Source: Plantactinospora soyae (GTDB lineage: Bacteria; Actinomycetota; Actinomycetes; Mycobacteriales; Micromonosporaceae). Taken from it: a stretch of 64,000 nt of DNA. A program made the translations under genes and the position numbers. The notes beneath the pieces were generated by a model. The model did no database searches. It was not told the DNA's origin and saw only the letters and a program-made list of their open reading frames with translations. This document shows positions 31,729 to 48,526 of this stretch, piece after piece. Position 1 is the stretch's first letter, and each line of letters opens with the position of its first letter. Where the stretch lies: assembly GCF_014874095.1 (NCBI RefSeq), contig NZ_JADBEB010000001.1, forward strand, positions 1,054,001 through 1,118,000. Direction: 5' to 3'.

Positions 31729-31773
31729 GACCACCCCCAAAATCATGTACGCCGTATAGAGTAACGAGCGACA

Positions 31774-33788: not shown

Positions 33789-33871
33789 CTCCCGTCGGAA
33801 CGGTTTGTCGAGGTCAGACGTTAGCCCCGACCCCTGACACCGAACGGACCCGGTCGGTCGACCCACGTCCG

Positions 33872-33901
33872 TTGCCCATTCCGGCCGGTACTGGATATAT
33901 T
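33872..33901 (+). promoter_or_regulatory. Promoter of the SGNH/glycosyltransferase unit
   Basis: TTGCCC (33872 to 33877) and TATATT (33896 to 33901) are separated by 18 bases on the plus strand. The -10 box is unusually AT-rich for this region. The predicted start near 33908 lies ten bases before the operator. Confidence 0.55.
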
Positions 33902-33917
33902 TACCTCCGTCGCGGCA

Positions 33918-33931
33918 TGGGAGCGTTCCCA
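33918..33931 (+). promoter_or_regulatory. LacI/CebR-type operator before the SGNH/glycosyltransferase genes
   Basis: TGGGAGCGTTCCCA matches the CebR palindrome TGGGAGCGCTCCCA at 13 of 14 positions. Position relative to the promoter (about +10) matches that at the GH9 gene. Confidence 0.75.
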
Positions 33932-34055
33932 CGCATCCGACCAACGGCTCGGCCAGCGGATTCGGTCAGCAGGCTCGGCGGCCGGCTCGGCCAGCAGGCT
34001 CGGCGGGTCGGCCCGGTGCCGCCGGGGAGAGCGCAGCAAGGAGACGGCATTGACC

Positions 34056-34814
34056 ATGACCCGGCTGCTCGTGGTGAACGGGTGCAGCTTCGCCCGGGGC
34101 GCGGAGCTGGCCAGGCCGGAGCGCGAGTCCTGGCCCGCCGTACTGGCCGCGGAACTCGGTATCGACGTGGTCAACCTGGCCTGTGACGGCGGGTCCAACC
34201 GGCGGGCCGTCCGGACGACCGTGCAGCACCTGGCGGCGATCCGGGCCGCACACCGGCTGGAGTACGACCAGATCCTCTTCCTCGGGATGTGGACCGCGCT
34301 GAGCCGCAACGAGTACTACGACAGCGGAATCGAGGACGGGCCGGTACGCCCGGACCTCGGCGTACGGCCGGCGCTGCCGGAGGAACTCCACTGGCAACGG
34401 GTGGCCGACTGGAAGGCCGCCGAGGGCGACAAGCCGTCGAAGGCGTACCTCCGGCACCTGTTCAGCACCACGGGCGAGACGGTGAACTTCTTCGTGGACT
34501 GGTTGCTCCTGGAACACCATCTCGCCGGGCGGGGCGTACCGAGCCGGTTCGCCTTCGCCTGGGAGATCCTGCCGGACCCGATTCCGGCCGAAGCGGTGCC
34601 ACTGATGCGGGCGCTCCGCGCCGACCTGGTCTTCGGGCAGTTGCCACCCCGCCCCCAGGACACCTTCCGGGAGATGGTGTTCGGCAGGGTTCCGTTCGGC
34701 GACTGGGACCATCCGCTCCGGGAGGGGCACCGGCACTTCGCCGACGCGATGCGCACCTGGCTGACCACGGACGAGCGGCTCTGCTTCCCACTCGCCGACC
34801 GGCTCCACCGGTGA
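34056..34814 (+). CDS. SGNH/GDSL hydrolase-like protein
   Basis: About 252 residues. ATG 34056 is used here, but a TTG six bases upstream (34050) is better spaced from AAGGAG. The N-terminal LVVNGCSFARGAEL (Ser in a GDSL-like block) is followed by NLACDGGSNRRAVRT and a C-terminal GDWDHPLREGHRHFAD (Asp-x-His catalytic pair), the SGNH arrangement. No signal peptide is present, so it is cytoplasmic. It may be an esterase or deacetylase acting on a sugar. It is coupled to the glycosyltransferase by a 4-bp GTGA overlap. Confidence 0.8.
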   Translation: MTRLLVVNGCSFARGAELARPERESWPAVLAAELGIDVVNLACDGGSNRRAVRTTVQHLAAIRAAHRLEYDQILFLGMWTALSRNEYYDSGIEDGPVRPDLGVRPALPEELHWQRVADWKAAEGDKPSKAYLRHLFSTTGETVNFFVDWLLLEHHLAGRGVPSRFAFAWEILPDPIPAEAVPLMRALRADLVFGQLPPRPQDTFREMVFGRVPFGDWDHPLREGHRHFADAMRTWLTTDERLCFPLADRLHR

Positions 34815-34876
34815 CGGCAGGCACGCCGGTCACGGCCCGTCCCGTGACGGCAGGCACGCCGGTCACGGCCCGTCCG
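34811..34876. repeat. 33-bp tandem duplication at a gene junction
   Basis: Two copies of GTGACGGCAGGCACGCCGGT plus 13 more bases (34811 to 34843 and 34844 to 34876), differing at the last base. The first copy contains the SGNH stop (TGA) and the glycosyltransferase start. Confidence 0.9.
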
Positions 34877-35773
34877 GTGGCGGCGCCCCGAGCTCCGGGG
34901 ACGACCGGGCCCGGCCTGGTGTCGGTGATCATTCCTACCCGCAACGGCGCGGCGACGATCGCCGCCCAGCTCCAGGCGTTGGGCCGGCAGACGTACCAGG
35001 GTCGGTGGGAGCTGATCGTGGTGGACAACGGCTCCACCGACGGGACGGCGGCACTGGTCGACGCCTTCCTCGGCCGGCTGCCGGAACTCCGGCTGCATCC
35101 GGCTACGGGGCAGGCCGGCACCAGCTACGCCCGCAACGAGGGCTGCCGGGTGAGCCGGGGCGAGCTGCTGCTCTTCTGCGACCAGGACGACATCGTCGGG
35201 CCCGAGTGGGTGGCGGAGATGGTACGCGGACTCGCCGAGTTCCCGGCGGTGGGCGGACACGTCGAACGTCACCTGCTCAACGACGACGTCTCGCTGGCCA
35301 CCCGGCCGGAGAAGCCGCCCGGATCGTTGCAGGGCGGCTTCGACTTCCTGCCGTACGCCCTCGGCGCCAACTGCGGCGTACGACGGGCCGTCTACGAGGA
35401 ACTCGGCGGCTTCGACCCGCACTACCGGTACGGCTCCGACGAGGTCAGCTTCTTCTGGCGGGCCCAACTCGCCGGGCACCGGCTCGGGGCGCTGCCCGAC
35501 GCCGTGGTCCACTACCGGCTCCGGCGTGACCTGCGCGGGATGGCCCGGCAGTACTACTCGTACGGCACGAGCCATCCCCGGCTGTACCGCGACTTCGCCA
35601 CCGCCGGACTACCCCGCTCGGTACGGTCCGCCGCGCGGGAGTGGCGCTGGCTACTGCACCACCTGCCCGACCTGTTCCGGTCCAGGAAGGCCCGAGCCGT
35701 CTGGGTGACCCGGTGCGCGATGCGCTGTGGACGCCTCGTCGGAAGCCTCCGCAACCGGGTGCTCTTTCCATAG
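34811..35773 (+). CDS. Family-2 glycosyltransferase
   Basis: 320 residues from GTG 34811. After a duplicated Ala/Pro/Thr leader (PVTAGTPVTARP twice, from a 33-bp repeat), the GT-A fold starts with VSVIIPTRNGAATIAAQLQA and VVDNGSTDGT, followed by CDQDDIVGPEW (DXD-like metal site). It has no membrane segment. GT2 enzymes transfer sugars from nucleotide donors, here perhaps to a cyclitol product. Its 3' end overlaps the end of the convergent Gfo/Idh gene by 123 bases. Confidence 0.9.
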   Translation: MTAGTPVTARPVTAGTPVTARPVAAPRAPGTTGPGLVSVIIPTRNGAATIAAQLQALGRQTYQGRWELIVVDNGSTDGTAALVDAFLGRLPELRLHPATGQAGTSYARNEGCRVSRGELLLFCDQDDIVGPEWVAEMVRGLAEFPAVGGHVERHLLNDDVSLATRPEKPPGSLQGGFDFLPYALGANCGVRRAVYEELGGFDPHYRYGSDEVSFFWRAQLAGHRLGALPDAVVHYRLRRDLRGMARQYYSYGTSHPRLYRDFATAGLPRSVRSAAREWRWLLHHLPDLFRSRKARAVWVTRCAMRCGRLVGSLRNRVLFP

Positions 35774-36772
35774 CTCGTCGGCCGGGTACCGGACCCCCGT
35801 GCGGGCCCGTACGGCGTCCAGGGTCCGCAGTACGGCGATCGTGTCCGCCGCCGTGGCCAACGGGCTCTCGGTCAGCCCGGCCCGCAGGCACCGCATCACC
35901 TCCACCGCCTCGTGGACGAAGCCCTCACCCTCGAAGGGCACCTCGACGAGTTGCGGCTCGGCGCCGGCCGGATGCAGGGTCAGCACCGCCGGCCGGAAGA
36001 ACCCCCGGCCCAGTTCGATCCGGCCGGTGCTGCCGCAGACCGCGGCGGTCCACGGGGTGTCGGCGACGATCGAGCAGGACAGGGTGGCCAGCGCGCCGTC
36101 CGGGTAGCCCAGCGTCATCGCGGTGGTCTCGTCGACGCCGTACGGGGTCAGCGTGGCGACCGCCGTGATCGACTCGGGCGGCCCGAGCAACAGGTGGGCC
36201 AGGGTCACCGGATAGACGCCGAGGTCGAGCAGGGCGCCCCCGCCGAGCGCCGGGTCACGCAGCCGGTGCCCGGGATCGACCGGCGCCACCAGGCCAAAGT
36301 CCGCCTGGACGAGCCGGGGTAACCCGACCGCGCCCTCCCGGACGAGTTCCACGAGTCGTCGGATCGCCGGCACACAGCGCATCCACATCGCTTCCATGAG
36401 GAACAGGCCGGTGCTCCGGGCCCGGGCCACCAGGTCGGCGGCCTCACCGGCGTTGAGGGTGAACGGCTTCTCGCACAGCACGGGCCGCCCCGCGTCCAGG
36501 CACGCCGCCACCGCGGCATGGTGGGTCGAGTGCGGTGTGGCGACGTACACGACGTCGACCCGGTCGTCGGCGAGGAGCCCGGCCCAACTGCCGTGGGCCC
36601 GGGGAATCGCGTACCGGTCGGCGAACCGGGCGGCGGCCGCCCCGGTGCGCGATCCGACCGCGACCACCTCGGCGTCCGGCAGGCGTACCAGGTCGTCGAC
36701 GAACTTTCCGGCCATCCAACCGGTGCCCAGGATGCCCCACCGGATCGGTCGGCCGGTCGGCGCTCCGCTCAC
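35651..36772 (-). CDS. Gfo/Idh/MocA-family oxidoreductase (second)
   Basis: 373 residues. The NAD(P) fold is IRWGILGTGWMAGKFVDDL (G-x-G-x-x-A). The family marks VVYVATPHSTHHAAV and CEKPFTLN (catalytic Lys) and the LLDLGVYPVTL His/Asp region are present. It should oxidise or reduce a sugar or cyclitol hydroxyl. The C-terminal 40 residues are a low-complexity extension that comes to overlap the convergent glycosyltransferase gene. It is the last gene of the seven-gene operon, with a 4-bp overlap to the TIM-barrel gene. Confidence 0.9.
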   Translation of the reverse strand: MSGAPTGRPIRWGILGTGWMAGKFVDDLVRLPDAEVVAVGSRTGAAAARFADRYAIPRAHGSWAGLLADDRVDVVYVATPHSTHHAAVAACLDAGRPVLCEKPFTLNAGEAADLVARARSTGLFLMEAMWMRCVPAIRRLVELVREGAVGLPRLVQADFGLVAPVDPGHRLRDPALGGGALLDLGVYPVTLAHLLLGPPESITAVATLTPYGVDETTAMTLGYPDGALATLSCSIVADTPWTAAVCGSTGRIELGRGFFRPAVLTLHPAGAEPQLVEVPFEGEGFVHEAVEVMRCLRAGLTESPLATAADTIAVLRTLDAVRARTGVRYPADELWKEHPVAEASDEASTAHRAPGHPDGSGLPGPEQVGQVVQ

Positions 36773-37803
36773 CGCCCGGATCCCGGTGCACCCGCGAGCG
36801 CCGGCCCCGCGTCCTTCGCCACCAGCGTCGCCACCGACGATCCGGCCGGCCGGGACAGGTCGACCGCCGCCGCCCGGTTCGGCTCCGCCGCCTCCGCCGC
36901 CCCGATCGCCCCGATCGCCTCCGCCGCCTCGTTCGCCCCGATCGCCTCGGCCGCCTCGTGCCGTCGGTCGAGGTCGTCGCGCAGCGCCAGGCAGTCGCGT
37001 ACGTAGTTGCCGGCGCGGGCGATCGGCGGATGCGGGTCACCGGTACCGCAGTACTCGACGCAGATCGCCGGCACACCGAGCGCGTACGCCTTGGTTATCC
37101 AGGCGTAGTTGTCCAGCACCCCGTCGGCGGTGTCCACATTGAAGTCGGCCCGCCCGCCGTCCGGATGGAGGTTCTTCAGGTGGAAGTAGCCGAGCCGGCC
37201 GGCGAGTTGGTCGAGTACTTCGGGATCCCGGTCGGCCGGGCTGACCACGTAGGCGTTGCCCGGATCCGCCGTGGCGAACACGTTCGGGTGATCGACCATG
37301 GCCAGCAGCCGGGCGGTGGTCGCCACGGTGTCGTGTACGGACCCCGGATACACCTCCACCCCGACCCGTACGCCGTGCCGCCGGGCGTACTCGCCGAGCT
37401 GCCGGTACCCCTCGGCGGCCCGTTCGTAGTGCCGGTCCTCGGCGATGGCGCTGCCGTTGCGCCGCCAGTCGTCCGGATCCCGCTCCAGGGTTCCGGACCA
37501 GCCGTTGACCAGTTCGATGCCGTGCCGGGCACAGGTCTCGATGGTCCGCCGGGCCAGCGCCAGCGAGGCGGCCCGGTCCGACGGGTCGTCGCCGACGAAG
37601 TCGCCGGTGTAGCCCACGCAGTGGATCGGCACCCCGTACCGCCGGCCGAGCGTCACCGCCTTGGCGATCTCGTCCTCCACCCGGGCCGGATCGAAGTGGA
37701 AGTGGACCAGTTCGATGCCGTCCCAGCCGTACCGCCGGGCGACCGCGAAGACGTGTCGCAGGGGGTACCGGCGGAACGTGTAGCTGTGCAGGACGAGTTT
37801 CAT
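36769..37803 (-). CDS. Sugar-phosphate isomerase/epimerase-like TIM barrel
   Basis: 344 residues. The AP_endonuc_2 type barrel begins MKLVLHSYTFRRYPLRHVF. The metal-binding residues are visible: Glu in RVGVEVYPG, Asp in ATADPGNAY, His in GYFHLKNLHPDG and Glu in CVEYCGTG. Such enzymes isomerise or epimerise keto-sugars and cyclitols (IolE/IolI/3-keto-sugar epimerases). The last 70 residues are a low-complexity Ala/Glu/Ile/Gly tail with EAAEAIGA repeats that is not part of the barrel. Both ends are coupled by 4-bp overlaps to Gfo/Idh genes. Confidence 0.88.
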   Translation of the reverse strand: MKLVLHSYTFRRYPLRHVFAVARRYGWDGIELVHFHFDPARVEDEIAKAVTLGRRYGVPIHCVGYTGDFVGDDPSDRAASLALARRTIETCARHGIELVNGWSGTLERDPDDWRRNGSAIAEDRHYERAAEGYRQLGEYARRHGVRVGVEVYPGSVHDTVATTARLLAMVDHPNVFATADPGNAYVVSPADRDPEVLDQLAGRLGYFHLKNLHPDGGRADFNVDTADGVLDNYAWITKAYALGVPAICVEYCGTGDPHPPIARAGNYVRDCLALRDDLDRRHEAAEAIGANEAAEAIGAIGAAEAAEPNRAAAVDLSRPAGSSVATLVAKDAGPALAGAPGSGR

Positions 37804-38810
37804 GGGTTCTGCCCTCCGCTCAACGCCAACCGCACTCCGCCGTTGGCGACGCTGCGTTCAAGCGCGTGCAGCACCCGTAGGTCCCGTAACGCGCGGGGGA
37901 TGCTCACCTCGGCCGGCACCGGGGCCCCCGCCGCGCTGGCGGCGAAGGTCCGGTACTGGGCGACGTACGGGTCCACCGGCTCCGGCCGCAGCCAACGCCG
38001 TCCCTGTTCGTCGCAGACCAGCACCGAGCCGCCGGAGTTCATCGCCCACGAGTCCCGGACCACCACCAGGCCCTGCTCGCAGACGACCGTGTACCGCGAG
38101 ACGCCGACACCGGGCGGCTCGGTGAACGACGACTCCAACTGCAGCCGCAGTCCGTCGCCGAACCACAGGGTCGCCTCCACGTAGATGTCGGTCCGCTCAG
38201 GATCGCCGCCCGGGTAGCCGGTGGCGCGGCAGGCCGTCGGCGCCGCGCCGAACACGTCCGTCGCGGTCAGCAGCGGATAGATGGCCAGGTCGCCGAGGCA
38301 GCCGAGTCCGCTGTCCGCGCGCCGGTTGCGCCAGTCGCCCTGTCGGTGCCCCAGGTGGCTGGCCGTGATCGACCGGGGCGTGCCGAGTCGTCCGGACCGG
38401 ACCAGTTCGACGACGGCCCGGTTGTAGGCGTTGTACCGGGACATGTAGCCGACCATCGCGGGCGCACCCGAGGCCATCGCGGCCCGGAGGATCCACTGCC
38501 CGCCGTCGACGGTGTCGGCCAACGGCTTCTCGACCAGGGTCGGGATGCCCCGGGCCAGGGCCCGGCAGGCGAACTCGGCGTGCCGCCGGTTCGGGGTGGC
38601 CACGTGCACCCCGTCCAGCGGCGTACGCAGGAACTCGCGGGAGTCGGTGCCGCACCAGACCCCCGGGAAGCCGGCTGCCACCGCGCGGAGCGTCTCGGGG
38701 TCCCGGTCCAGCACGGCGGCCAGGCTCAGGTCGCCGGCTTCGGCGATCGCGGGCAGCAGTGACTGGCGGGTCAGGAACCCGGCGCCCACGATGCCGATCC
38801 GAAAGGTCAT
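37800..38810 (-). CDS. Gfo/Idh/MocA-family oxidoreductase (first)
   Basis: 336 residues from ATG 38810. The N-terminal FRIGIVGAGFLTRQSLLPAI is a Rossmann NAD(P) site. The VHVATPNRRHAEFACRAL motif and VEKPLADTVDGG (catalytic Lys) follow. The C-terminal half has the Gfo/Idh beta-sheet domain with GCLGDLAIYPLL (catalytic Asp in this line). It differs clearly from the second Gfo/Idh protein of the operon and so is not a recent duplicate. Two dehydrogenases flanking an epimerase suggest a keto-sugar or keto-cyclitol intermediate. Confidence 0.9.
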   Translation of the reverse strand: MTFRIGIVGAGFLTRQSLLPAIAEAGDLSLAAVLDRDPETLRAVAAGFPGVWCGTDSREFLRTPLDGVHVATPNRRHAEFACRALARGIPTLVEKPLADTVDGGQWILRAAMASGAPAMVGYMSRYNAYNRAVVELVRSGRLGTPRSITASHLGHRQGDWRNRRADSGLGCLGDLAIYPLLTATDVFGAAPTACRATGYPGGDPERTDIYVEATLWFGDGLRLQLESSFTEPPGVGVSRYTVVCEQGLVVVRDSWAMNSGGSVLVCDEQGRRWLRPEPVDPYVAQYRTFAASAAGAPVPAEVSIPRALRDLRVLHALERSVANGGVRLALSGGQNP

Positions 38811-40390
38811 CGGGCGTCTCCCGTTCGGCCGGATCCGATCGCCCCGGCCCCGGCGTCGCCGGACGCACCCGGGCACCACCGCAGCAACAGGCTGCGTGGG
38901 GCGAGCGAGACATAAGTGGCACCGGCGATGGCGTCCAGGGTGTGCCGCTGCGCGGTCAGGGCGGCGTCCAGCGCCGGGTCGCCGGTGACCACCGGCTGGA
39001 CCGGGGCGAGCAGCACCGCGACGCCGACCGAGCGGGTGTGCCAGACGAGCTGGTACGAGTGGTGGTTCCAGCCACTGCCCTCGTGCACCTCGACCCGGCG
39101 GTCGAGCCGCTCGGTCAGCCGTCCGGCCCGTACCGCCCGGGCCAGGCCGGCGCCGTACCCGACGACGTGTACGGCGGTCAGCTCCGGCCGCTCCGCCAGC
39201 CAGCCCGCGAGTACCCCGGCCAACTCGTCGACGCTGCCCACCGCCCGGCCCCCACCGGGACGGTCGGTGGCGGTCGGCGCCAGGGGCATCAGCCGCTTGT
39301 AGCGGTTCACCGCGTCGTGGGTGGCGAAGCGGAGTCCATGCCGGACCGCCACGCAGGCGACCAGGGCGGCCACGGCGTAGCTCGTGGCCATCGCGGTGGC
39401 GACCGCTCCGGCGGGACTGCCGGCGGGCCGCAGCCCCGAGATGCCCTCGGCGATGTCGACGACCACCTCCCCGGCGGCCGTGCCGTTCCGGGCGGACTGC
39501 TCCGGCGACTCCCCGACGACGTCCGATCCGGGTTCCAGGTCCGGATCGGAACCCGGGACCGGGCCCGGGAACTGCGGCGCGGCCACGTCCGGCCACGGGC
39601 GGAACCGCTCGGACTTGCCGCCCCAGCCCTGCCGGGCGGCCTGCAGGGTCCAGAGTCGCAGTCCGGGGCCGGAGCCGTGCGGTAGCCGGAACACCACCCG
39701 GGGTCCTCCGGTGGCCGGGAGCCGGCGGGACTCCTCGCCGGCCCACTCCCCGATCGCCCGGGTCGCCGTCGCGAACTCCCGGTACGCGTCGGAGAACCGT
39801 GGCCAGCAGAGCATCCGCGCGGCGAGCAACGCCGGTCGGGAGAGCGGGGTGCCGTAGAGAGCCACCTGGTCGCGGGCGCCGGTCAGGGAGAGCGCTCCGT
39901 CGCGTTCGGACAGCCAGACCGGAGGCGCCGCGCCGCTACGCTGCCCGGCCACCGCGAGGGTGGCGGCGAGCAAGCTGGTCTCCCGGGTACGCCCCGACGC
40001 ACTCACCGCGAAGCCGGCCGTGTCGCCCGACCGACCCGCCTCGGCGAGTACCCGTTGGGTGGCGGCCGGGTCGAGGCTGTCCAGCACCCGGACCGTGGAC
40101 TGACCCGGCAGTGCCTCGCAGACGGCTCGCAGCCCGAAGGCCCAGCCCCCGGTGCCGACGAACACCGCCCGGTGACAGCCCCGCAGCGGCGCCCCACCGC
40201 TGCGCGGCCCGAGCAGGCGGGACACCACCGGCCAGGGTGGCGCGTGCACCCACCCGAGTCGGGGCACCCCGGCCAGGCTGGCCAGCGCGGCGACCGTACC
40301 CGCCGGTCCGTGTCGATCACCACGGGCCGCCGCCCGGACGTACGCCCACAGTTCGGCTCCGGTCGGCTCCGGCCGTCGTACCCCGGTCAC
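38807..40390 (-). CDS. Phosphoglucose-isomerase-like (SIS-domain) protein
   Basis: 527 residues from GTG 40390; a longer in-frame reading lies over the upstream gene. Phosphoglucose isomerase signatures are recognisable but divergent: FVGTGGWAFGLRAV (79 to 90; compare GIGGSALGP), then VRVLDSLDP (100 to 108) and FAVSASGRTRET (127 to 138; compare VxSKSGxTxET). In the second domain, VEVHEGSGWNHHSYQLV may hold a catalytic Glu-His. A glycosidic-sugar or cyclitol phosphate isomerase is plausible; canonical Pgi would be about 550 residues with closer motifs. It sits directly downstream of the fused kinase-dehydrogenase with a 4-bp overlap. Confidence 0.75.
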   Translation of the reverse strand: MTGVRRPEPTGAELWAYVRAAARGDRHGPAGTVAALASLAGVPRLGWVHAPPWPVVSRLLGPRSGGAPLRGCHRAVFVGTGGWAFGLRAVCEALPGQSTVRVLDSLDPAATQRVLAEAGRSGDTAGFAVSASGRTRETSLLAATLAVAGQRSGAAPPVWLSERDGALSLTGARDQVALYGTPLSRPALLAARMLCWPRFSDAYREFATATRAIGEWAGEESRRLPATGGPRVVFRLPHGSGPGLRLWTLQAARQGWGGKSERFRPWPDVAAPQFPGPVPGSDPDLEPGSDVVGESPEQSARNGTAAGEVVVDIAEGISGLRPAGSPAGAVATAMATSYAVAALVACVAVRHGLRFATHDAVNRYKRLMPLAPTATDRPGGGRAVGSVDELAGVLAGWLAERPELTAVHVVGYGAGLARAVRAGRLTERLDRRVEVHEGSGWNHHSYQLVWHTRSVGVAVLLAPVQPVVTGDPALDAALTAQRHTLDAIAGATYVSLAPRSLLLRWCPGASGDAGAGAIGSGRTGDAR

Positions 40391-42726
40391 GGCGAACCTC
40401 GACGGCCCGGCTCCGAAAAGGCCGGCGCCACCACGGTGCCGTCGAGCCGGAAGTCGACCACCACCCGCAGCGCCGAGGTACCCGCCACCGTGCCGTGGTC
40501 GAGGAGTTCCGTCGCTACGGCCGGCAGCGCGGGCAGCGATACGAGGTGGCTGACCAGTGGGGTCAGGTCGAGCGGTGCCGGCCCGGCGGTGATCCGGATA
40601 CCGGACCCGCCGTCCTCGGCCGGGGTGCCCTCGTCGGAGTCGCCTCCGGTGAGCAGGTCGCGGGCGGCGGCGAAGTCGATGCCACGACCGCCCCGGGTAC
40701 CGACCACTGTGCACCGGCCACCGGCCGGGTTGTCGACGACCCGGAATCCGGCGCTGGCCCGCAGCGGCCCCGGGTCCAGGGTCAGGCCGCCGATCCGGAC
40801 CGGCCGGCCGGCGTGGAATCCGCCGAACAGGTGCAGTCCCGCCCCGTCCGCCAGCGCCGGCCAGACGAGTTCGGCCGCCGCCGGGCCGGCGGCACCCGCG
40901 ACCGCGATCACGGCGAGTTCGGCGCCCCGGCCGGCGGTGGCGGACCGGACCCCGGCCGCCAGTCCCGGACCGAGCGGCAGAACGGCATCCGGGGTCGGCA
41001 GCCCGCGCCGCAACGCGACCTGGAGGCGCCGGTCGGACCGGGCCGCGACGGTCACCGTACGGGCACCCCGGGCCCGGGCCACGGCGACGTGCAGCAGGGC
41101 CAGTACGCCGGCGCCGAGCACGAGTACGTCCCGACCGGCCCAGTCCCCGGCCAACGCCCGGTGGGCGCGCAGCACCGCGGCCAGCGGCTCCAGCAGTACC
41201 CACTCCGGCCCACAGCCCGGCGGCAGCCCGACGACCTGCCCCTGGGCCAGCGCCCCCAGGTCACTCACGATCACGTCCCGGAACACTCCGGGCACGTTGT
41301 GGCCCAGCTTGAGATAGTCGTCGCCCGGATGGTTCGGATTGAGTGTCACCAGGTCACCGGGGAGCGGACCGGAGACGTCGGCGCCGACCTCGACCACCTC
41401 GGCCACGCACTCGTGTCCGAGCACCCCCGGTTCCAGGCCCCGCTCGCCGCGCAGGATCTGCAGGTCGGTCCCGCAGAATCCGGCGTACCTCGGGCGGAGC
41501 AGTAACTGTTCGCGGCCGCACCGGGGCCACGGCCGGACGGTCAGCACCAGACGCGCCTCGCCGACCGGCTTGACCACCTCCCGGGCCTGCGTCCCCCGGG
41601 CCGCGAGGTAGCCGGCCATCCCGGCCAGGGTGGCGTGCTCGGCGTCGTCCGGTACGTGCAGCAGCCCGTCCCGGTCGGCCACCGGCCAACCCTGGAACCA
41701 GCCGGCGTCGACGTACAGCTCCGTGAGCCAGCCGCGCAGCGCGGCGAACCAGGGCGCGCCCATCCCGTGCGCGAAGCCGCCGACCACGACCACCACGCGC
41801 AGCCCGAGCTGGGCGCAGACCTGCAACACGGCCACCGCGAGGTGCCGGGTGGCGGCGCGTACCACGGCGAGGACGAACGGGTCGTCGTCCCGGGCCGCGT
41901 CGGCGAGTGCCCGCGCGTCGATCCGCGCCGGGTCGCCGTCGACCAGGCGGTGCAGGCGCGAGCCGGCGAACTCGGCGCCGTCGCGCCGCGCCCGCCGGAT
42001 CGCGGCGCGGACCACGGCCGGTCCGGAGCTGTACGCGCAGAGGTCGGCGACCGCGCCGCAGTCGCACCAGGGCAGGTCCCAGTCGGCGAGCCGGTCCTGG
42101 GCGGCCCGGTCCCCGGCGGCGGCGGCCCGGCCGAGTCGCGCGGCACCGGCCGGCCCACCGGGCACCGTGTCGAGCAGGGTCGGCTCCACCGGTACGTGAC
42201 CGATCTCACCGCCCAGGCCGGCCGGATCGGCGAGCACCTTGTCGACGCCGACCAGCCGATCGTCGAAAATCTTGACCGCCACCCCGGTGCTCACGGTGAC
42301 CAGGGCGAAGCGGCCCAGGCTCCGGTAGTGCCAGGCGGCGGCGGCCACGTCGTTGAGTACCGTCACCCGGGCCCACGGCAGCCGGCTCCGCAGCGCCGCC
42401 CGCAGGTCGAAGCCGGCCGACTGGGCCCGCCACAGCACGCTCGCGTCCCGGATCACCCCGTCGGCGCCGACCACCGCACCGAACGCGACGCCCAGGTCGC
42501 GGCGGCCGACCGGCCCGGCCGCACGGTGCAGCCGGTCGGCCTCCTCGGCCACCCGGTCGAGCAGGCCGTCCCGGGCGTCGGCGAGCGAGAGTTCCTGCCG
42601 GTCGCGACGGCTGGGCGTGGCGAACCGGACCACCTCGCCGACCAGCCGATCCCCCTGCGCCAGCGCCAACCGGGTCTGGGTCCCGCCGACATCGACCACG
42701 ACACTGCTCTGCGGCACCGGACTCAC
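40387..42726 (-). CDS. Fused ROK-family sugar kinase and zinc-dependent dehydrogenase
   Basis: 779 residues from GTG 42726, overlapping the cyclase stop by 4 bp. Residues 8 to 376 are a ROK kinase: phosphate motif VVVDVGGTQTR (12 to 16 DVGGT), catalytic Asp D126 in VLNDVAAAAW, GHVPVEP, then an insert before WCDCGAVADLC (221 to 230, the ROK zinc motif). Residues 391 to 779 are a medium-chain zinc dehydrogenase: GFCGTD (416 to 421), GHEC (437 to 440), then the cofactor loop VLVLGAGVLALL. The structural-zinc Cys cluster is missing. ROK kinases ValC/AcbM and a dehydrogenase like AcbL phosphorylate and oxidise C7-cyclitols; here both lie in one chain. Confidence 0.88.
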   Translation of the reverse strand: MSPVPQSSVVVDVGGTQTRLALAQGDRLVGEVVRFATPSRRDRQELSLADARDGLLDRVAEEADRLHRAAGPVGRRDLGVAFGAVVGADGVIRDASVLWRAQSAGFDLRAALRSRLPWARVTVLNDVAAAAWHYRSLGRFALVTVSTGVAVKIFDDRLVGVDKVLADPAGLGGEIGHVPVEPTLLDTVPGGPAGAARLGRAAAAGDRAAQDRLADWDLPWCDCGAVADLCAYSSGPAVVRAAIRRARRDGAEFAGSRLHRLVDGDPARIDARALADAARDDDPFVLAVVRAATRHLAVAVLQVCAQLGLRVVVVVGGFAHGMGAPWFAALRGWLTELYVDAGWFQGWPVADRDGLLHVPDDAEHATLAGMAGYLAARGTQAREVVKPVGEARLVLTVRPWPRCGREQLLLRPRYAGFCGTDLQILRGERGLEPGVLGHECVAEVVEVGADVSGPLPGDLVTLNPNHPGDDYLKLGHNVPGVFRDVIVSDLGALAQGQVVGLPPGCGPEWVLLEPLAAVLRAHRALAGDWAGRDVLVLGAGVLALLHVAVARARGARTVTVAARSDRRLQVALRRGLPTPDAVLPLGPGLAAGVRSATAGRGAELAVIAVAGAAGPAAAELVWPALADGAGLHLFGGFHAGRPVRIGGLTLDPGPLRASAGFRVVDNPAGGRCTVVGTRGGRGIDFAAARDLLTGGDSDEGTPAEDGGSGIRITAGPAPLDLTPLVSHLVSLPALPAVATELLDHGTVAGTSALRVVVDFRLDGTVVAPAFSEPGRRGSP

Positions 42727-44795
42727 GACCGGTCCCACGCCCACGGCGGTACGGCCGGCGCCGCCGCCGTCCGGGTACCGACCGCCCGGGCCCGCAGCGC
42801 CGTCCAGGCCCGGCGCAGGTCCCCCGCGCCGATCTCGTCGATCGAGTCGACGAACCCGCCCACCCCGATCCCGACCGGTACGGCCAGGTGCAGTTCGCCG
42901 CCCTTGTGCGGCAGTACGTGGGTCCGCAGCGCCCGCCACAACTCCCCGGCCGCACAGCAGTCGTCGTACGTCGGCAGCCCGATCCGGCGCAGCAGCGTCT
43001 CGGCGCGGTCGGCGACGGTCCGGGGCAGCCGGCCGGCGCTGACCCCGAGGCGACAGGAGAGCGCCATCCCGATCGCGACCGCCTCGCCGTGCCGGAGCCG
43101 GTAGTCGGACCGCTCCTCCAGCACGTGGCCGAACTCGTGGCCGAAGTCCGCCAACCGGCGCAGCCGCCGCTCCCAGGGGTTCTCCTCCAACTCGACCAGC
43201 ATCGCCGCGACGGCCCGCCGGAGCACCTCGTCGAGCACCGGGGCGCCGCCCGGGGTTCGCAGTGCGCGGTGGTGCTCCTCGACGAGGCCGTACAGCCGGG
43301 CGTCCCGGACCAGTGCGATCTTGACGATCTCGGCCAGCCCGCAGCGGAACTCGACGTCCGGCAGGGTGGTGAGGAATCCGGCGTCGCAGAGGCAGGCCAG
43401 CGGTGCGTGGTACGCGCCGAGCAGGTTCTTCCGCCCGTCCAGGTCGACGCCCACCTTCAGGCCCACGCCCGCGTCGACCAGTCCGACCAGGGTGGTCGGG
43501 ATCCGCAGGTAGGGCGTGCCGCCGGGATGGCAGGCGGCGACGTAGCCGACCAGGTCGAGCATGGTGCCACCGCCGACGGCGAGGATCCGGTCGTCCGGTC
43601 CCAGTCGCATCCGCCGGGCCGTCCGGAGCAGTTCCTCGGCGGCGTCGAGAGTCTTGCCCCGGGGCGTACTGCGAATCGGCAGCACCGTGAAGCCGCCCAG
43701 CCGGCCCTGGCGGAACCGCGCGTCCAGGGTGTCCCGGGCGGCGGCGGTGACCTTGCCGGAGTAGTCGTCCACCACCGCCAGTACCCGGGCGCCGGCCGGC
43801 AGGTAGGCCGAGAGGGCGGGGTTGCCGGGGTCGAGGACTCCGCTGGTGAAGGTGACCCGGTAGGACACCTCCCGGATCCGGTGCGCCCGGACCGACACCC
43901 GTACCGGCGTCGCCGCCTGCAACGAGATCGACGGCTGCAACAAGAACGACGCCCGGGGCGGAACCGACCCCCGGGCCCGGCTCGGCTCGGCCGCCCGCGT
44001 CGGCGGCGGCGGCCAGACGCGCGGGTCGCCGGGGGCGTACCGGTGCAGCAGCCGGGACACCGCGCCCAGCGCCGTCCGCCGGAGCAGGGACGGCGGCGGG
44101 CGGTCCGCACCCCGGTCCAGGTGCTCGGCGAGTACGTCGTCGAAGCCGGCGAGGTGACGCAGTGCCCACTCCTCGTCGGGGCGTACCGGGGTGGTGTCGG
44201 CGAGCAGGGTGTCCAGGTCGACGAGCACGAACGGGTCCCGCCCGGGAACGGCGATCGCGGGGTCGCCGGCCACCGTCCGGGCGTCCCAGTGCAGGGCGGC
44301 CAGCAGCGCCGGCAGGTCGTCGTGCACCCGTACCGCGTGGGCGTACCGGCGGTACATGGCGGCGGCCAGCGTGGTCGTGGCGGTCGCCCGGGTCCCGCCA
44401 ACGGACAGGAACGCGTCCCGGCGGCCGAGCCGGGCCGTCACGGCGGCCCGGACCACCGCCCGGACCGGCGCGGCACCGGGCAACCCGGCCAACGTCCGGC
44501 CGTCGACCGTCTGGTGGTCGTCGAGCGCGCCCCGGTCCCGCCAGTGGTCGAGGTACGCGCCGAGCCGCCGGCCCTGCTCCGGGTGGTCGCAGACGGCGAG
44601 GATCCGCCGGGCCCCGCCGAACGCCCGGAGCAGGGTGGGATTGCCCGGGCTCCACAGGTTCCGCCGGATCCGCAGTTCGAAGGTGTCGACCAGCTCGGCC
44701 CGGAACGAGTCCTTGAGCCCGTACGCGGGGCGAGCGGCGGTACGGGAAACCTCGCGGGTGCGGCCCGGAACCGTGACCGGCGTCGTCGTCGGCAT
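42723..44795 (-). CDS. Double-domain sugar phosphate cyclase (EEVS/DHQS superfamily)
   Basis: 690 residues. The C-terminal domain (about 308 to 665) is a complete cyclase: AVGGGTMLDLVGYVA (406 to 420), IPTTLVGLVDAGVGLKVGVD (432 to 451), KNLLGAYH, and metal ligands E489 (GLAEIVK), H553 (FGHEFGH) and H569 (RHGEAV). The N-terminal domain (about 31 to 230) is a degenerate copy of the NAD-binding half: AFLSVGGTRATATTTLAAAM (128 to 147) sits where the GGGT loop should be, without the metal ligands. Family members cyclise sedoheptulose 7-phosphate to valiolone-type cyclitols or form dehydroquinate. The KNLLG loop favours the sedoheptulose cyclases, though the exact product is unknown. Confidence 0.85.
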   Translation of the reverse strand: MPTTTPVTVPGRTREVSRTAARPAYGLKDSFRAELVDTFELRIRRNLWSPGNPTLLRAFGGARRILAVCDHPEQGRRLGAYLDHWRDRGALDDHQTVDGRTLAGLPGAAPVRAVVRAAVTARLGRRDAFLSVGGTRATATTTLAAAMYRRYAHAVRVHDDLPALLAALHWDARTVAGDPAIAVPGRDPFVLVDLDTLLADTTPVRPDEEWALRHLAGFDDVLAEHLDRGADRPPPSLLRRTALGAVSRLLHRYAPGDPRVWPPPPTRAAEPSRARGSVPPRASFLLQPSISLQAATPVRVSVRAHRIREVSYRVTFTSGVLDPGNPALSAYLPAGARVLAVVDDYSGKVTAAARDTLDARFRQGRLGGFTVLPIRSTPRGKTLDAAEELLRTARRMRLGPDDRILAVGGGTMLDLVGYVAACHPGGTPYLRIPTTLVGLVDAGVGLKVGVDLDGRKNLLGAYHAPLACLCDAGFLTTLPDVEFRCGLAEIVKIALVRDARLYGLVEEHHRALRTPGGAPVLDEVLRRAVAAMLVELEENPWERRLRRLADFGHEFGHVLEERSDYRLRHGEAVAIGMALSCRLGVSAGRLPRTVADRAETLLRRIGLPTYDDCCAAGELWRALRTHVLPHKGGELHLAVPVGIGVGGFVDSIDEIGAGDLRRAWTALRARAVGTRTAAAPAVPPWAWDRS

Positions 44796-44799
44796 CGAC

Positions 44800-46296
44800 T
44801 CAGACCGGAGTCGGCTGGGCGCAGGCCCGTCGCAGCAGGTCGACCAGCGGCTGGCGCGGTCGGCACTGGTCGAACCGGAACGAACGCATCATCTCGTCGA
44901 TCGCCGACTCGTCCATGCCCCGGAACAGCCCACCGAACTCGGGCAGCAGGGCCTCGGCGAACAGGATCTGCGGCACCAGCCGTCCGATCAGGAACTCGCT
45001 GCCGAACGGGAACGGCAGGTAGTCGGGGAACTCGGCGGCGAAGAGTTCCGTGAGCGGCCGCATGACCTGCTGGATGTGATCGTGCCGGCCACCCCACAGG
45101 TCGACGCCGAGCCGGGCCTTCTTCTCCAGCACGGGTCGGATCCGGCGCATCCAGGCACTCTCCGGGTCGACGGTCAACGGCGCCGCCACCCCGATGTCCT
45201 TGTACGGCCAGAACGCCCAGTTGGCCCGGTGCCGGGTGTAGATCTCGAACTGGTCGGCGAGCAGGTCCAGCCGCATCCGGTCGCGCTCGGCGTCCCCGGT
45301 GAAGACCACGTTGAACTCGCCGACGTAGACCGGGGTGCCGGTGCGCAGCATGTACTCGCTGCGCTTGAGATAGGTCCGCTCCAGCACGTCCGCGTCGAAG
45401 TACTGGTCGCGGGACTGGTCCGGCAGCAGGATGCCGTGCTCGTAGCCGACCCCGTCCGGCGACTCCCAGACGTGGGTCAGGTGCGCCACGCCCGGGTACC
45501 GGCCGTCCGGTACGTACCCGGGCGGCGCGTAGTCGTGGTGCGAGTAGACGACGTTCGGCAGCGGGTCGCCGTACACCTCGAAGTCGTTGGAGTAGCGGTT
45601 CCCCTCCAGTACGACGATGTGCCGGGGGTCGATCTCGCGGATCGCCTCGACCAGCCGGCGCGAGTACGGCCCGATCACCTCGCCGGTCGGGTCCGCCGGC
45701 TCGTTGACCGGGTTGTACGCGGCCACCCACGGGTTGTCCCGGTAGCGGCGGGCGATCTCCCGCCAGAGGTGTACGACCCGGTCCTGGAAGTGCGGATGCT
45801 GCCAGAACTGGGCCACGTGGGTGGGGTTGTCGCTGTGCCAGTCCTGGTTCTGCCATCCGGGCAGCGCGTGCAGGTCGATGATGGTGCGTACGCCCTGCCC
45901 GGCGAGCAGTTCGATCGCCCGGTCCAGGTGGTGGAAGCCGGACTCCTTGAGCTCGAACGGCCGCTGGTCGTCCTCCAGGTGGCGGTAGTTGACCGGGATC
46001 CGAACCACGTTGCAGCCGAGCCCGGCGATGAACCGGGCGTCGTCGGCGGTGAAGAAGTGCTCCAGGAACCGGTCGAAGAAGAACTCCGCCCGCTCGGGGC
46101 CGAGCACGTCCCGTACGGCGCCCCGCATGCCCTGCTCGTACGCCGGGAAACCGGTCATCCAGTTCTCGAAGTTGAGCCAACCGGCGAGGCCAATCCCGCG
46201 CCAGATAACCGGGCGGCCGTCGTCGTCAACTATTTGATCGCCATTGGTCCGGAGAAATCCTCCGGGGCACGCCAAAGTAAACCGGGACACGGACAT
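44800..46296 (-). CDS. Cytoplasmic glycoside hydrolase family 5
   Basis: 498 residues from ATG 46296 behind AGGGGG; an upstream ATG (46356) is possible but has no good binding site. No signal peptide is present. The (beta/alpha)8 barrel has RGIGLAGWLNFENW, VVRIPVNYRHL, DLHALPGWQNQDWHS, the acid/base E199 in AYNPVNEPAD, an HHDYAPPG segment and the nucleophile E327 in VYVGEFNV. The group includes exo-1,3-beta-glucanases and endoglucanases. As first gene of the cyclitol-type operon it may process a glycosylated intermediate or release glucose from imported beta-glucosides. It ends 4 bases before the cyclase start. Confidence 0.92.
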   Translation of the reverse strand: MSVSRFTLACPGGFLRTNGDQIVDDDGRPVIWRGIGLAGWLNFENWMTGFPAYEQGMRGAVRDVLGPERAEFFFDRFLEHFFTADDARFIAGLGCNVVRIPVNYRHLEDDQRPFELKESGFHHLDRAIELLAGQGVRTIIDLHALPGWQNQDWHSDNPTHVAQFWQHPHFQDRVVHLWREIARRYRDNPWVAAYNPVNEPADPTGEVIGPYSRRLVEAIREIDPRHIVVLEGNRYSNDFEVYGDPLPNVVYSHHDYAPPGYVPDGRYPGVAHLTHVWESPDGVGYEHGILLPDQSRDQYFDADVLERTYLKRSEYMLRTGTPVYVGEFNVVFTGDAERDRMRLDLLADQFEIYTRHRANWAFWPYKDIGVAAPLTVDPESAWMRRIRPVLEKKARLGVDLWGGRHDHIQQVMRPLTELFAAEFPDYLPFPFGSEFLIGRLVPQILFAEALLPEFGGLFRGMDESAIDEMMRSFRFDQCRPRQPLVDLLRRACAQPTPV

Positions 46297-46769: not shown

Positions 46770-47924
46770 GTGGCCAGCGACCCCGATCCGCCCGGACCCG
46801 ATCCCCGGCTGCACCGGCCCCGGATCGCCACCCTGGCCGCGCTGGTCGGCACCCTGCTGACCGGTCTGGCCATGCCGGCGATCGGGCTGGCCCGGGAGTC
46901 CGATCCGACCTGGATACTGCTCGGCACGCTCGGCGTCGTGGCCTTCGCCATGGCCCAACTGGCGGCGCTGTACGTGGTGGTCACGCCCTGGCTCACCGCC
47001 TCGACCCGACACCGGTTGCTGGTCGGTTTCGCCGCGACCGCCGTCGCCTCCGTACCCCTGGTCGGCCCGGTCGGCGACGACCGGTGGGCGACCTGGGCCT
47101 GGCTCGGCGCCTCGATCGTCGGGTCCGCGCCGCTGCTGCTCCGGCGCTGGCCGGCGCTCCTGGTGATGGCGGGCACCGTCGTCGTCGCGATCGGGGTGGC
47201 CGCCTGGACCGGCGGCTCCATCCGCGACTACGCCCTGGTCACCGGCACCGTCGGCCTCGGGGTCGCCGTCGTCGGCTGGCTCCAGGTGTGGTTCTGGGAT
47301 CTCCTGGTGCACGCCCAGCGTGGCCGCACCGCCCAGGCCCGGCTGGTCGCCACGCAGGAGCGGCTACGGTTCGCCCGGGACGTACACGACCTGCTCGGAC
47401 ACAATCTCACCGTGATCGCGCTGAAGGCCGAACTCGCCTCCCGACTCGCGCCGGTGGACGCCGAACGCGCCGGCCGGGAGGCCGCCGAGGTGCAGCGGTT
47501 GGCGCTCTCGGCGCTCGCCGAGGTACGCGAGGCGGTGCACGGGTACCGGACAATCGACCTGCGTGACCAGCTCACCGCCACCGCGCAGGTGCTGCGCTCC
47601 TCCGGCGTACGGTGCACCGTGGACCAGCCGGAGGAGGAGCTGCCGCCGGAGGTCGCGAGCCAACTCGCCCCCGTACTGCGAGAGGCCAGCACCAACCTGC
47701 TGCGGCACAGCCGGGCCAGCTGGTGCACGATCGAGCTGCGGCGGGACGGCGGAAGGATCCGGATGACGGTGTCGAACGACGGGGCGGGACCGGCCGAGCC
47801 GGACCGGCACAGCTTCGGGCTGCGTGGCCTCGCCGACCGGCTGGCCGACGTCGACGGGACCCTCCGGACCGAGCACCACGACGGCGTGTTCACGGTCGAG
47901 GCCACCGTACGGGCCGCGCGATGA
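46770..47924 (+). CDS. DesK/NarX-type sensor histidine kinase
   Basis: 384 residues from GTG 46770. Five hydrophobic helices occupy about 18 to 178 and form a compact membrane sensor with almost no extracellular loop. The HisKA_3 phospho-acceptor is H206 in FARDVHDLLGHNLTV. The ATPase domain follows with ASTNLLRHSRA (N-box) and FGLRGLADRL (G-box). This is the common actinobacterial kinase paired with a NarL regulator, and the regulator gene follows with an ATGA overlap. The stimulus may be a cell-envelope or membrane state. Confidence 0.92.
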   Translation: MASDPDPPGPDPRLHRPRIATLAALVGTLLTGLAMPAIGLARESDPTWILLGTLGVVAFAMAQLAALYVVVTPWLTASTRHRLLVGFAATAVASVPLVGPVGDDRWATWAWLGASIVGSAPLLLRRWPALLVMAGTVVVAIGVAAWTGGSIRDYALVTGTVGLGVAVVGWLQVWFWDLLVHAQRGRTAQARLVATQERLRFARDVHDLLGHNLTVIALKAELASRLAPVDAERAGREAAEVQRLALSALAEVREAVHGYRTIDLRDQLTATAQVLRSSGVRCTVDQPEEELPPEVASQLAPVLREASTNLLRHSRASWCTIELRRDGGRIRMTVSNDGAGPAEPDRHSFGLRGLADRLADVDGTLRTEHHDGVFTVEATVRAAR

Positions 47925-48526
47925 TCCGGGTCCTGCTCGCCGACGACGAGGAACTGATCCGGGTCGCGGTGGCCGCCCTGCTCGACCTGGAGGCCGACCT
48001 CGAGGTCGTGGCGCAGGCGGCCGACGGTCGGGCCACGGTGCAGGCGGCCCTGGCGCACCGCCCGGACGTGGCCGTCGTCGACCTGGAGATGCCGTCGCTG
48101 GACGGCCTCGCGGTCACCGCCGAACTCGCCAAAGCACTGCCCTCCTGCGCGGTGGTGATCCTGACCGGCCGGGGAAGGCCGGCACACCTGCGCCGGGCAC
48201 TCACCACGGGCGCCCGGGGATTCCTGGCCAAGGGCGCACCCGGCGGCGCGCTCGCCGACGTCATCCGGCGGGTGCACGGCGGTGCCCGGTACGTCGACCC
48301 GGCGCTGGCGGCGGAGGCCCTCGTCGCGCCCGAGTGCCCACTGACCCCACGCGAGCTGGAGGTACTGCGGCTGGCCGGCACCGACACACCCGTCGGAGTC
48401 GTCGCCCGGCGTGCGCAACTGTCCCAGGGGACCGTCCGCAACCACCTGGCCGCGGTAGTCGGCAAGCTCGGCGTGACCAGCCGCGCGGAGGCGTACCGGA
48501 CCGCCCACGAGAACGGCTGGCTGTAA
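47921..48526 (+). CDS. NarL/LuxR-family response regulator
   Basis: 201 residues from ATG 47921, overlapping the kinase stop. The receiver has DDE at 8 to 10, acceptor D54 in VAVVDLEMPSLDG, and LTGRGRPAHLR around the switch Thr and KGAP with the conserved Lys. The C-terminal LuxR HTH is LTPRELEVLRLAG, then GVVARRAQLSQGTVRNHLAA and VVGKLGVTSRAEA. It is the cognate partner of the kinase. The genes it controls are not visible here. Confidence 0.93.
   Translation: MIRVLLADDEELIRVAVAALLDLEADLEVVAQAADGRATVQAALAHRPDVAVVDLEMPSLDGLAVTAELAKALPSCAVVILTGRGRPAHLRRALTTGARGFLAKGAPGGALADVIRRVHGGARYVDPALAAEALVAPECPLTPRELEVLRLAGTDTPVGVVARRAQLSQGTVRNHLAAVVGKLGVTSRAEAYRTAHENGWL

What the first reader, a model, noticed from the sequence alone, without database searches (positions are those of the whole stretch)
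35651..46296. Seven-gene coupled operon with the logic of a C7-cyclitol (carbasugar) pathway
Seen in sequence: GH5 hydrolase, sugar phosphate cyclase, ROK kinase-dehydrogenase, isomerase-like protein, two Gfo/Idh oxidoreductases and a TIM-barrel epimerase follow one another with a 4-nt gap or 4-bp overlaps. Established: EEVS-type cyclase, ROK cyclitol kinase, epimerase and dehydrogenase are early steps of acarbose and validamycin synthesis. Inference: the operon makes a valiolone-type cyclitol or a glycosylated derivative. It lacks an aminotransferase, a cyclitol nucleotidyltransferase and a pseudoglycosyltransferase, so the product should differ from known C7N aminocyclitols.
Basis: partly seen in the sequence, partly recalled or inferred. 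Interest (0 to 1): 0.88.

Follow-up and report, generated by a model that had tools for sequence, protein, structure and literature searches.

The report
Cyclitol operon with half-dead double cyclase
A soil bacterium carries a conserved set of seven genes that looks made for building a ring-shaped sugar mimic, and its first enzyme is two fused copies of a ring-closing enzyme, one dead, where the dead copy seems to have kept the one key residue that the live copy lost.

Summary
The seven-gene operon is real: one 4-nt gap and five 4-bp overlaps. The genome is a Plantactinospora. The locus is in 6 of 7 genomes of the genus; four loci in other actinobacterial genera and a second P. alkalitolerans locus keep the core order. 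Nostoc calcicola has a reduced version. The cyclase groups with sedoheptulose-7-phosphate cyclases, not DHQS, but as its own deep clade. It is not a canonical EEVS: two active-site positions are DHQS-like.

Its N-terminal ~270 residues are a decayed cyclase domain, below Pfam's cut-off. All 12 distinct catalytic domains of the clade have glycine where 80 of 82 other covered cyclases have arginine. The dead domain keeps that arginine in 11 of 12 proteins, with no other alignable pocket residue conserved. The one outsider with the residue deleted, from Legionella brunensis, also has a fused dead domain with the arginine. I propose that the dead domain completes the live active site. That this arginine works across the dimer is recalled, not tested; Nostoc is the exception. 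The product is unknown. Relatives add a phosphatase, ABC-2 transporter and glycosyltransferase, suggesting an exported cyclitol glycoside.

The parts
44800..46296 (-). GH5 retaining glycosidase, 498 aa (start ATG; longer TTG start possible to 46356); both catalytic Glu motifs (NEP, GEF) present by eye; no obvious signal peptide by eye
   Evidence: Pfam Cellulase 1.5e-30; best PDB 9ku5 'putative beta-xylosidase GE32' 7.1e-95 over residues 15-494; 91-93% identical in 4 other Plantactinospora loci (L026-L029)
42723..44795 (-). double sugar phosphate cyclase, 690 aa
   Evidence: AF2 model pLDDT 85.9, pTM 0.85
44016..44714 (-). N-terminal dead cyclase domain, residues 28-260
   Evidence: hhalign of 8 such domains to the cyclase profile: Prob 99, E 4.2e-18, 334 columns; Pfam DHQ_synthase only 15.4 bits, cut-off 24.2
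44346..44351 (-). Arg149-Arg150 of the dead domain; Arg150 aligns with the column of A. nidulans DHQS Arg130 (numbering recalled)
   Evidence: invariant in 10 of 10 rows; 8 of 8 rows in the hhalign map
42780..43907 (-). catalytic cyclase domain, residues 297-672
   Evidence: best PDB ValA 4p53 E 3.4e-59, Foldseek TMt 0.91; metal and substrate residues retained
43521..43523 (-). Gly425 at the position that is Arg in nearly all other cyclases
   Evidence: G in 12 of 12 clade sequences, R in 80 of 82 others with a residue or gap there
40387..42726 (-). ROK kinase fused to zinc (MDR) dehydrogenase, 779 aa (kinase about 1-345, dehydrogenase about 376-779)
   Evidence: Pfam, PDB sequence matches of the dehydrogenase half; the fusion is kept in Nostoc
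38807..40390 (-). SIS/phosphoglucose-isomerase-fold protein, 527 aa
   Evidence: AF2 pLDDT 81.2, pTM 0.84; Foldseek top hits PGI; invariant GTGGW, SxxxxTxE and WNHHS in 11 rows
37800..38810 (-). Gfo/Idh oxidoreductase 1, 336 aa
   Evidence: best PDB aldose-aldose oxidoreductase 6.4e-26
36769..37803 (-). AP_endonuc_2 TIM barrel (epimerase/isomerase/lyase type), 344 aa
   Evidence: weak PDB matches, best 5tnv 5.6e-6, AsbF 1.6e-5
35651..36772 (-). Gfo/Idh oxidoreductase 2, 373 aa
   Evidence: best PDB dihydrodiol dehydrogenase 7.2e-60
34814..35773 (+). family-2 glycosyltransferase, convergent, 3' end overlaps Gfo/Idh 2 (start approximate)
   Evidence: Pfam 2e-24; same place in 4 of 5 other Plantactinospora loci of this type (L026-L029, not L025)
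34050..34814 (+). DUF6071 protein, kept beside the operon in the genus
   Evidence: Pfam 2e-25; present in 5 of 5 other Plantactinospora loci of this type (L025-L029)
46770..48526 (+). divergent two-component system (HisKA_3 kinase; response regulator recognised by eye, not Pfam-scanned), candidate regulator
   Evidence: kinase Pfam; both genes 73-92% identical beside the operon in L026-L029; only about 30-34% identical regulators beside L030, L032 and L033

Best explanation
The operon makes a phosphorylated C7 cyclitol and probably a glycoside of it. Its entry enzyme is a fused double cyclase. The C-terminal domain keeps the NAD, metal and most substrate residues and should cyclise sedoheptulose 7-phosphate, or a close relative, by the DHQS-type oxidation, elimination and aldol route (inferred from family; substrate not shown). 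The N-terminal domain is a dead copy. In dehydroquinate synthase each active site is, as I recall, completed by one arginine (A. nidulans Arg130) from the neighbouring subunit. In this clade the live domain has lost that arginine and the dead domain has kept it, so the fusion probably works as a cis pseudo-dimer in which the dead domain donates Arg150 to the live site. Next, the ROK half of the fused kinase-dehydrogenase would phosphorylate the ring and the MDR half would oxidise or dehydrate it, as AcbM and AcbL do in acarbose synthesis; the PGI-fold protein would isomerise the ring phosphate; the Gfo/Idh, TIM and Gfo/Idh set would edit ring or attached sugar through a keto intermediate; GT2 would add a sugar and the apparently cytosolic GH5 would trim or release it. 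Shown here: architecture, residue swap, conservation, fold. Inferred: every chemical step.
For: Gene order conserved; the PGI-fold gene is found in 6 of 7 genus genomes, in 1 of 394 sampled class genomes, the window's own, and in 1 of 291 sampled genomes of the Nostoc order, N. calcicola itself. Cyclase groups with ValA and DDGS against DHQS, support 99. Dead domain is a cyclase by profile-profile comparison. Arg130 column: G in 12 of 12 clade sequences versus R 80, K 1, gap 1 and 2 not covered of 84 others. The dead domain keeps RR in 11 of 12 distinct clade proteins (10, L045; Nostoc lacks that half) and conserves none of the pocket residues that could be aligned. The one gapped outsider, L. 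brunensis, has its own fused dead domain with FRRG aligned to RRG. Dead-domain dN/dS is 0.51-0.88, below 1 in 15 of 15 pairs. When the dead domain is shortened in actinobacteria, the half with the arginines is what remains. DHQS domains form dimers (passages of PMC9074039). Acarbose precedents: passages of PMC9200736.
Against: That Arg130 acts across the dimer is recalled. Three paper searches aimed at it showed no such paper in their listings (15 of 167, 15 of 67 and 10 of 480 papers listed), and passages of two DHQS papers did not state it. I could not read the model's coordinates. Nostoc calcicola keeps the C-terminal, not the arginine-bearing, half, against the model unless that copy is broken. 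Dead-domain dN/dS is higher than the live domain's (0.28-0.53), as expected of slow decay. The live domain has His557 and Lys631 where EEVS-type enzymes have Pro and Arg, which might compensate for the lost Arg alone. The operon lacks the HAD phosphatase, ABC-2 transporter and long GT2 seen in relatives.
Confidence: 0.45

Rival explanations
1. The dead domain is a decaying relic. The catalytic domain works as an ordinary homodimer and replaced Arg130 by His557 and Lys631 of its own.
For: Relaxed dN/dS 0.51-0.88; different truncations in different lineages, including loss of the arginine half in Nostoc; His and Lys in 12 of 12.
Against: RR invariant in 10 of 10 although only 23 of 151 filled columns of that half are invariant; the 39 DHQS-type sequences have the His as well as Arg130 (39 of 39 each); an outlying Legionella protein repeats the pattern.
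Confidence: 0.25
2. The dead domain is a scaffold or allosteric domain, for example binding the ROK-MDR partner or an effector, unrelated to Arg130.
For: dN/dS below 1 in 15 of 15 pairs; confident two-domain model, pTM 0.85.
Against: Does not explain why, among the sequences covered, the Arg is lost only where a fused dead domain is present.
Confidence: 0.2
3. The cyclase uses a different sugar phosphate, such as a hexose 6-phosphate, and the operon makes a C6 cyclitol or inosose-type product; the PGI-fold protein prepares the substrate.
For: Loss of Arg130 and DHQS-like His and Lys; PGI fold; Gfo/Idh and TIM proteins match inositol-enzyme models, all below cut-off.
Against: Nearest solved relative is ValA (3.4e-59) while 2-deoxy-scyllo-inosose synthase is at 4.2e-21; groups with S7P cyclases.
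Confidence: 0.2
4. A catabolic operon: GH5 splits a cyclitol glycoside and the rest degrades it.
For: GH5, ROK kinase, Gfo/Idh and TIM-barrel sets also occur in sugar catabolism (recalled).
Against: A cyclase is a biosynthetic entry enzyme (recalled); relatives carry an ABC-2 (export-type) transporter, MFS and glycosyltransferases in the cluster.
Confidence: 0.1

Closest known systems
ValA / AcbC, 2-epi-5-epi-valiolone synthases
   Same: Fold; EEVS-type Asp550 and Met532; ValA is the best solved relative (38% identity, TMt 0.91); ROK kinase nearby as in acarbose
   Different: Fused dead second domain; Gly for Arg130; His557 and Lys631 instead of Pro and Arg; separate deep clade
Acarbose (acb) early pathway
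   Same: Cyclase, ROK 7-kinase and cyclitol dehydrogenase (passages of PMC9200736)
   Different: Kinase and dehydrogenase fused; PGI-fold protein, Gfo/Idh pair and GH5 added; no aminotransferase, nucleotidyltransferase or pseudoglycosyltransferase among the genes tested
Streptol / streptol glucoside of Ca. Burkholderia kirkii
   Same: A nitrogen-free C7 cyclitol and its glucoside (passages of PMC8599487), a plausible product type
   Different: Gene sets not compared here; no sequence tie shown
ebo operon (EboD cyclase with a xylose-isomerase-like partner)
   Same: Conserved operon around a non-DHQS cyclase with a xylose-isomerase-like partner (abstract and 12 of 21 passages of PMC5133447)
   Different: No UbiA-type prenyltransferase here; no dead domain mentioned in the passages seen

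Membership tests
[quoted passage not shown]
[quoted passage not shown]
   SH-aLRT 99; quick tree only, 45 chosen rows; the clade lies outside the group that holds ValA and DDGS (92)
[quoted passage not shown]
   His and Lys in 12 of 12; Pro in 41 and Arg in 41 of 42 EEVS-type sequences. That this feature defines EEVS is my reading of the alignment, not a cited rule
[quoted passage not shown]
   Gly in 12 of 12
[quoted passage not shown] 2014 | not testable with these tools
   that paper was not looked up; two other cyclase papers tried were not held; the fingerprint is mentioned without the full list in passages of PMC4426668
[quoted passage not shown]
   needs enzyme assay
3-dehydroquinate synthase (AroB) | Asn246 and Lys228 (Mtb numbering); DHQS clade | tested here: not met
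   Asp and Met in 12 of 12; the genome holds another, DHQS-type cyclase L001
C7N aminocyclitol cluster (acarbose/validamycin type) | ROK-family cyclitol kinase beside the cyclase | tested here: met
   substrate not tested
C7N aminocyclitol cluster (acarbose/validamycin type) | Aminotransferase, cyclitol nucleotidyltransferase, pseudoglycosyltransferase | tested here: not met
   absent from 9 + 10 proteins of operon and flanks; remaining window genes not scanned
Phosphoglucose isomerase (gene 4) | PGI/SIS fold | tested here: met
Phosphoglucose isomerase (gene 4) | Match to a curated PGI family | tested here: not met
   no Pfam family above cut-off and no NCBIfam match

The most novel reading that the evidence does not exclude
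A sugar phosphate cyclase has turned its homodimer into a single chain: a fused dead copy has lost catalysis but supplies in cis the arginine that a partner subunit would supply, while the live copy has lost its own. This split has spread with the pathway, or arisen more than once, in actinobacteria and a gammaproteobacterium, and it defines a new class of cyclitol cyclase feeding a nitrogen-free glycosylated cyclitol.
Probability: 0.4. Interest if true: 0.75.

Novelty: new variant of a known kind. Interest (0 to 1): 0.6.

Why it matters
It would be a clean natural case of subunit complementation becoming a fusion: a pseudoenzyme kept for one residue. It makes a precise, cheap test possible (one arginine in the dead half, one glycine in the live half). 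It also marks a cyclitol pathway that ordinary annotation is likely to misread: the dead domain falls below Pfam's threshold in 6 of 6 proteins tested, and the best NCBIfam models of the live one, all below cut-off, are 3-dehydroquinate synthases. The locus is in 6 of 7 Plantactinospora genomes and rare in the wider samples, so it is a concrete target for a new carbasugar.

Tried and rejected
Canonical EEVS assignment: rejected on active-site positions. DHQS: rejected. Window ABC-2 transporter (29879-31746) as the operon's exporter: its ATPase is only 30-34% identical to the relatives' operon ATPase and its permease gave no match in the ten sources searched, so it is not treated as an orthologue. 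Counterparts of the relatives' GT2 and HAD elsewhere in the genome: GT2 none convincing (6.4e-6), HAD best 42%. Cyclophellitol literature: no paper held both terms. Literature on a dead or fused cyclase domain: 10 papers listed, two looked at by passages, nothing relevant. Plantactinospora with cyclitol: 0 papers. GE32: 10 of 157 listed, none with the name. EEVS with ROK: 30 of 3,774 listed, nothing relevant. Plasmid collection: 115 records, all under 60% identity, none covering 80% of the query; the 20 shown match only the C-terminal domain. First tree had only 3 clade rows because my list of 18 duplicate ids removed others, and its careful search did not finish; it was replaced by a quick tree of 45 rows (12 clade rows, 3 PDB references, 30 other loci chosen by hand); the genome's own DHQS-type cyclase L001 was asked for but did not enter it. 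In one search the clade was set by hand as identity of at least 46.9% to the window, L073 excluded. The hhalign map differs between global and local mode in the C-terminal half, so residue losses there are less sure than those in the N-terminal half. In the class search only the four best first-look candidates per genome were scored.
Full report
Observation. The seven ORFs are present at the stated place on the minus strand, with one 4-nt gap and five 4-bp overlaps.

Host and distribution. The window lies in a 9.7-Mb single-contig genome. Named relatives place it in Plantactinospora. With a profile of the PGI-fold protein the locus is found in 6 of 7 genus genomes, including the window's, and in 1 of 394 sampled class genomes, which is the window's own; with the Nostoc protein it is found in 1 of 291 sampled genomes of the order of Nostoc, which is N. 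calcicola itself. The full seven-gene order with the convergent GT2 and DUF6071 is read in the window and four others (L026-L029; L041 and L042 have the contig lengths and places of L028 and L027). P. alkalitolerans has a reduced copy, in which most of GH5, the whole ROK-MDR gene and GT2 gave no match (L025, the same place as L040), plus a second, diverged locus (L031, the same place as L043). That second locus and four loci in other genera (L030; L033; L045 of Actinoallomurus soli; L046 of Micromonospora sp. KC606, the same place as L032) keep GH5, cyclase, ROK-MDR, PGI-fold, then Gfo/Idh 1 and TIM. The four in other genera have a related HAD phosphatase, ABC-2 ATPase, permease and long GT2 inserted between; L043 has the GT2 there, only half of the PGI-fold gene, and HAD, MFS, carbamoyltransferase and aldo/keto reductase genes around it. 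The GH5 of L030 aligns in two pieces, possibly a frameshift. Nostoc has the double cyclase, the same ROK-MDR fusion, a PhyH oxygenase and the PGI-fold protein. GH5 is the most conserved of the seven proteins between the window and L026-L029 (91-93%).

The cyclase is a double cyclase. Residues ~297-672 are the live domain: best solved relative ValA (E 3.4e-59; Foldseek TMt 0.91, 38% identity). Metal and core residues (window E489, H553, H569, K492, K447, D441, N457) are kept in 12 of 12 clade sequences. Residues ~28-260 are a decayed second copy: eight such domains against the cyclase profile give Prob 99, E 4.2e-18 over 334 columns. Pfam sees this only below its cut-off (14.6-21.7 bits against 24.2 for five proteins; 19.0 against 27.6 for the Nostoc half). 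In L030, L033, L045 and L046 the dead domain is full length; in Plantactinospora the C-terminal half is eroded; in L043 only the N-terminal half remains. Nostoc is the reverse: only a C-terminal half is present (Prob 92, E 6e-7).

The residue swap. I tabulated active-site columns across the cyclase regions held and counted distinct sequences (matches of at least 200 residues, contained duplicates removed, clade set at 46.9% identity or more with L073 left out: 12 clade, 84 other). At the column of A. nidulans DHQS Arg130 the clade has Gly in 12 of 12. The others have Arg in 80, Lys in 1 (L069), a gap in 1 (L062) and no coverage in 2 (L073, L104). The numbering, and the statement that this Arg binds substrate from the neighbouring subunit, are recalled; three searches showed no paper stating it in their listings. 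The pocket list in a passage of PMC6262012, made for a single chain, does not contain this Arg, which is compatible but proves nothing. In the dead domain the aligned residue and its neighbour are Arg-Arg in 8 of 8 rows of the profile map and 10 of 10 in the ten-sequence alignment, where 23 of 151 filled columns of that half are invariant; taken together 11 of the 12 distinct clade proteins have it, Nostoc being the one without. No pocket residue that could be aligned is conserved across the dead-domain rows; one of the eleven could not be aligned, single rows show chance identities, and the C-terminal part of the map is unsure. The single gapped outsider, Legionella brunensis L062, turned out to encode a 1962-aa protein with its own N-terminal dead cyclase half whose FRRG aligns with the live domains' RRG (Prob 88.5, E 2.7e-6), then a live cyclase without the Arg, then a ROK domain. 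So among the sequences covered the Arg is deleted or replaced by glycine only in proteins with a fused dead copy, and in all of those except Nostoc calcicola the dead copy has the Arg. This pattern, not the count of conserved columns, is my main argument for complementation.

Selection. Across 15 pairs of six Plantactinospora sequences, dN/dS (NG86; high-GC genomes, so rough) is 0.51-0.88 for the dead domain, 0.28-0.53 for the live one and 0.21-3.25 for the short linker. The dead domain is constrained, but loosely. This fits either a domain kept for few contacts or slow decay.

Phylogeny and class. In the quick tree of 45 chosen rows the 12 clade rows form one group (89) on the sedoheptulose-7-phosphate side (99), outside the group that holds ValA and DDGS (92); seven DHQS-type rows are apart. 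The clade has EEVS-type Asp550 and Met532 but DHQS-type His557 and Lys631. It is therefore not filed as EEVS. A figure legend in PMC5133447 (passages) says that the clade of confirmed 2-epi-valiolone synthases would be taken for DHQS from the tree alone, so the present clade is probably not that class either; no such reference sequence was in my tree.

Likely pathway. By family: cyclisation of sedoheptulose 7-phosphate; ROK 7-phosphorylation and MDR dehydrogenation or dehydration, as AcbM and AcbL in acarbose synthesis (passages of PMC9200736); isomerisation of the ring phosphate by the PGI-fold protein; keto-route editing by Gfo/Idh and TIM; sugar transfer by GT2; GH5 as trimming, release or self-protection enzyme. 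All chemistry is inferred. Nitrogen-free C7 cyclitols and glucosides such as streptol glucoside exist (passages of PMC8599487).

Verdict. A genuine, conserved and rare cyclitol-type operon whose entry enzyme has an unusual and testable architecture. The strongest doubts are the untested trans role of the arginine and the Nostoc exception.

Noticed in passing
L040:9796-12151 (same place as L025): In P. alkalitolerans the genus-type operon keeps only the two ends of GH5 and lacks the whole ROK-MDR gene, the next gene's start overlapping the cyclase stop; the same genome has a second locus with these genes, a natural gene-loss pattern (or assembly effect) worth checking.
   Followed up: partly
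L062:9113-15001: Legionella brunensis encodes a 1962-aa fusion of dead cyclase half, cyclase, ROK kinase and an HD-like region (below Pfam's cut-off), beside a Stealth-type protein (7913-8890); described only.
   Followed up: partly
window 35651-35773: The convergent glycosyltransferase and Gfo/Idh 2 overlap by 123 bp on opposite strands; the tblastn matches overlap at the same place in L026.
   Followed up: no
L002 (G000:C1:1309133-1309465): The genome has a further, very divergent sugar phosphate cyclase (end branch 2.09 in the tree) outside the window.
   Followed up: no
window 32670-33932: AlkZ-like DNA glycosylase gene (Pfam 1.2e-84) near DUF6071; a protein with a similar start sits at the same place in L026 (by eye).
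   Followed up: no
window 52588-53418: Tautomerase domain and SnoaL-like domain in one ORF.
   Followed up: no
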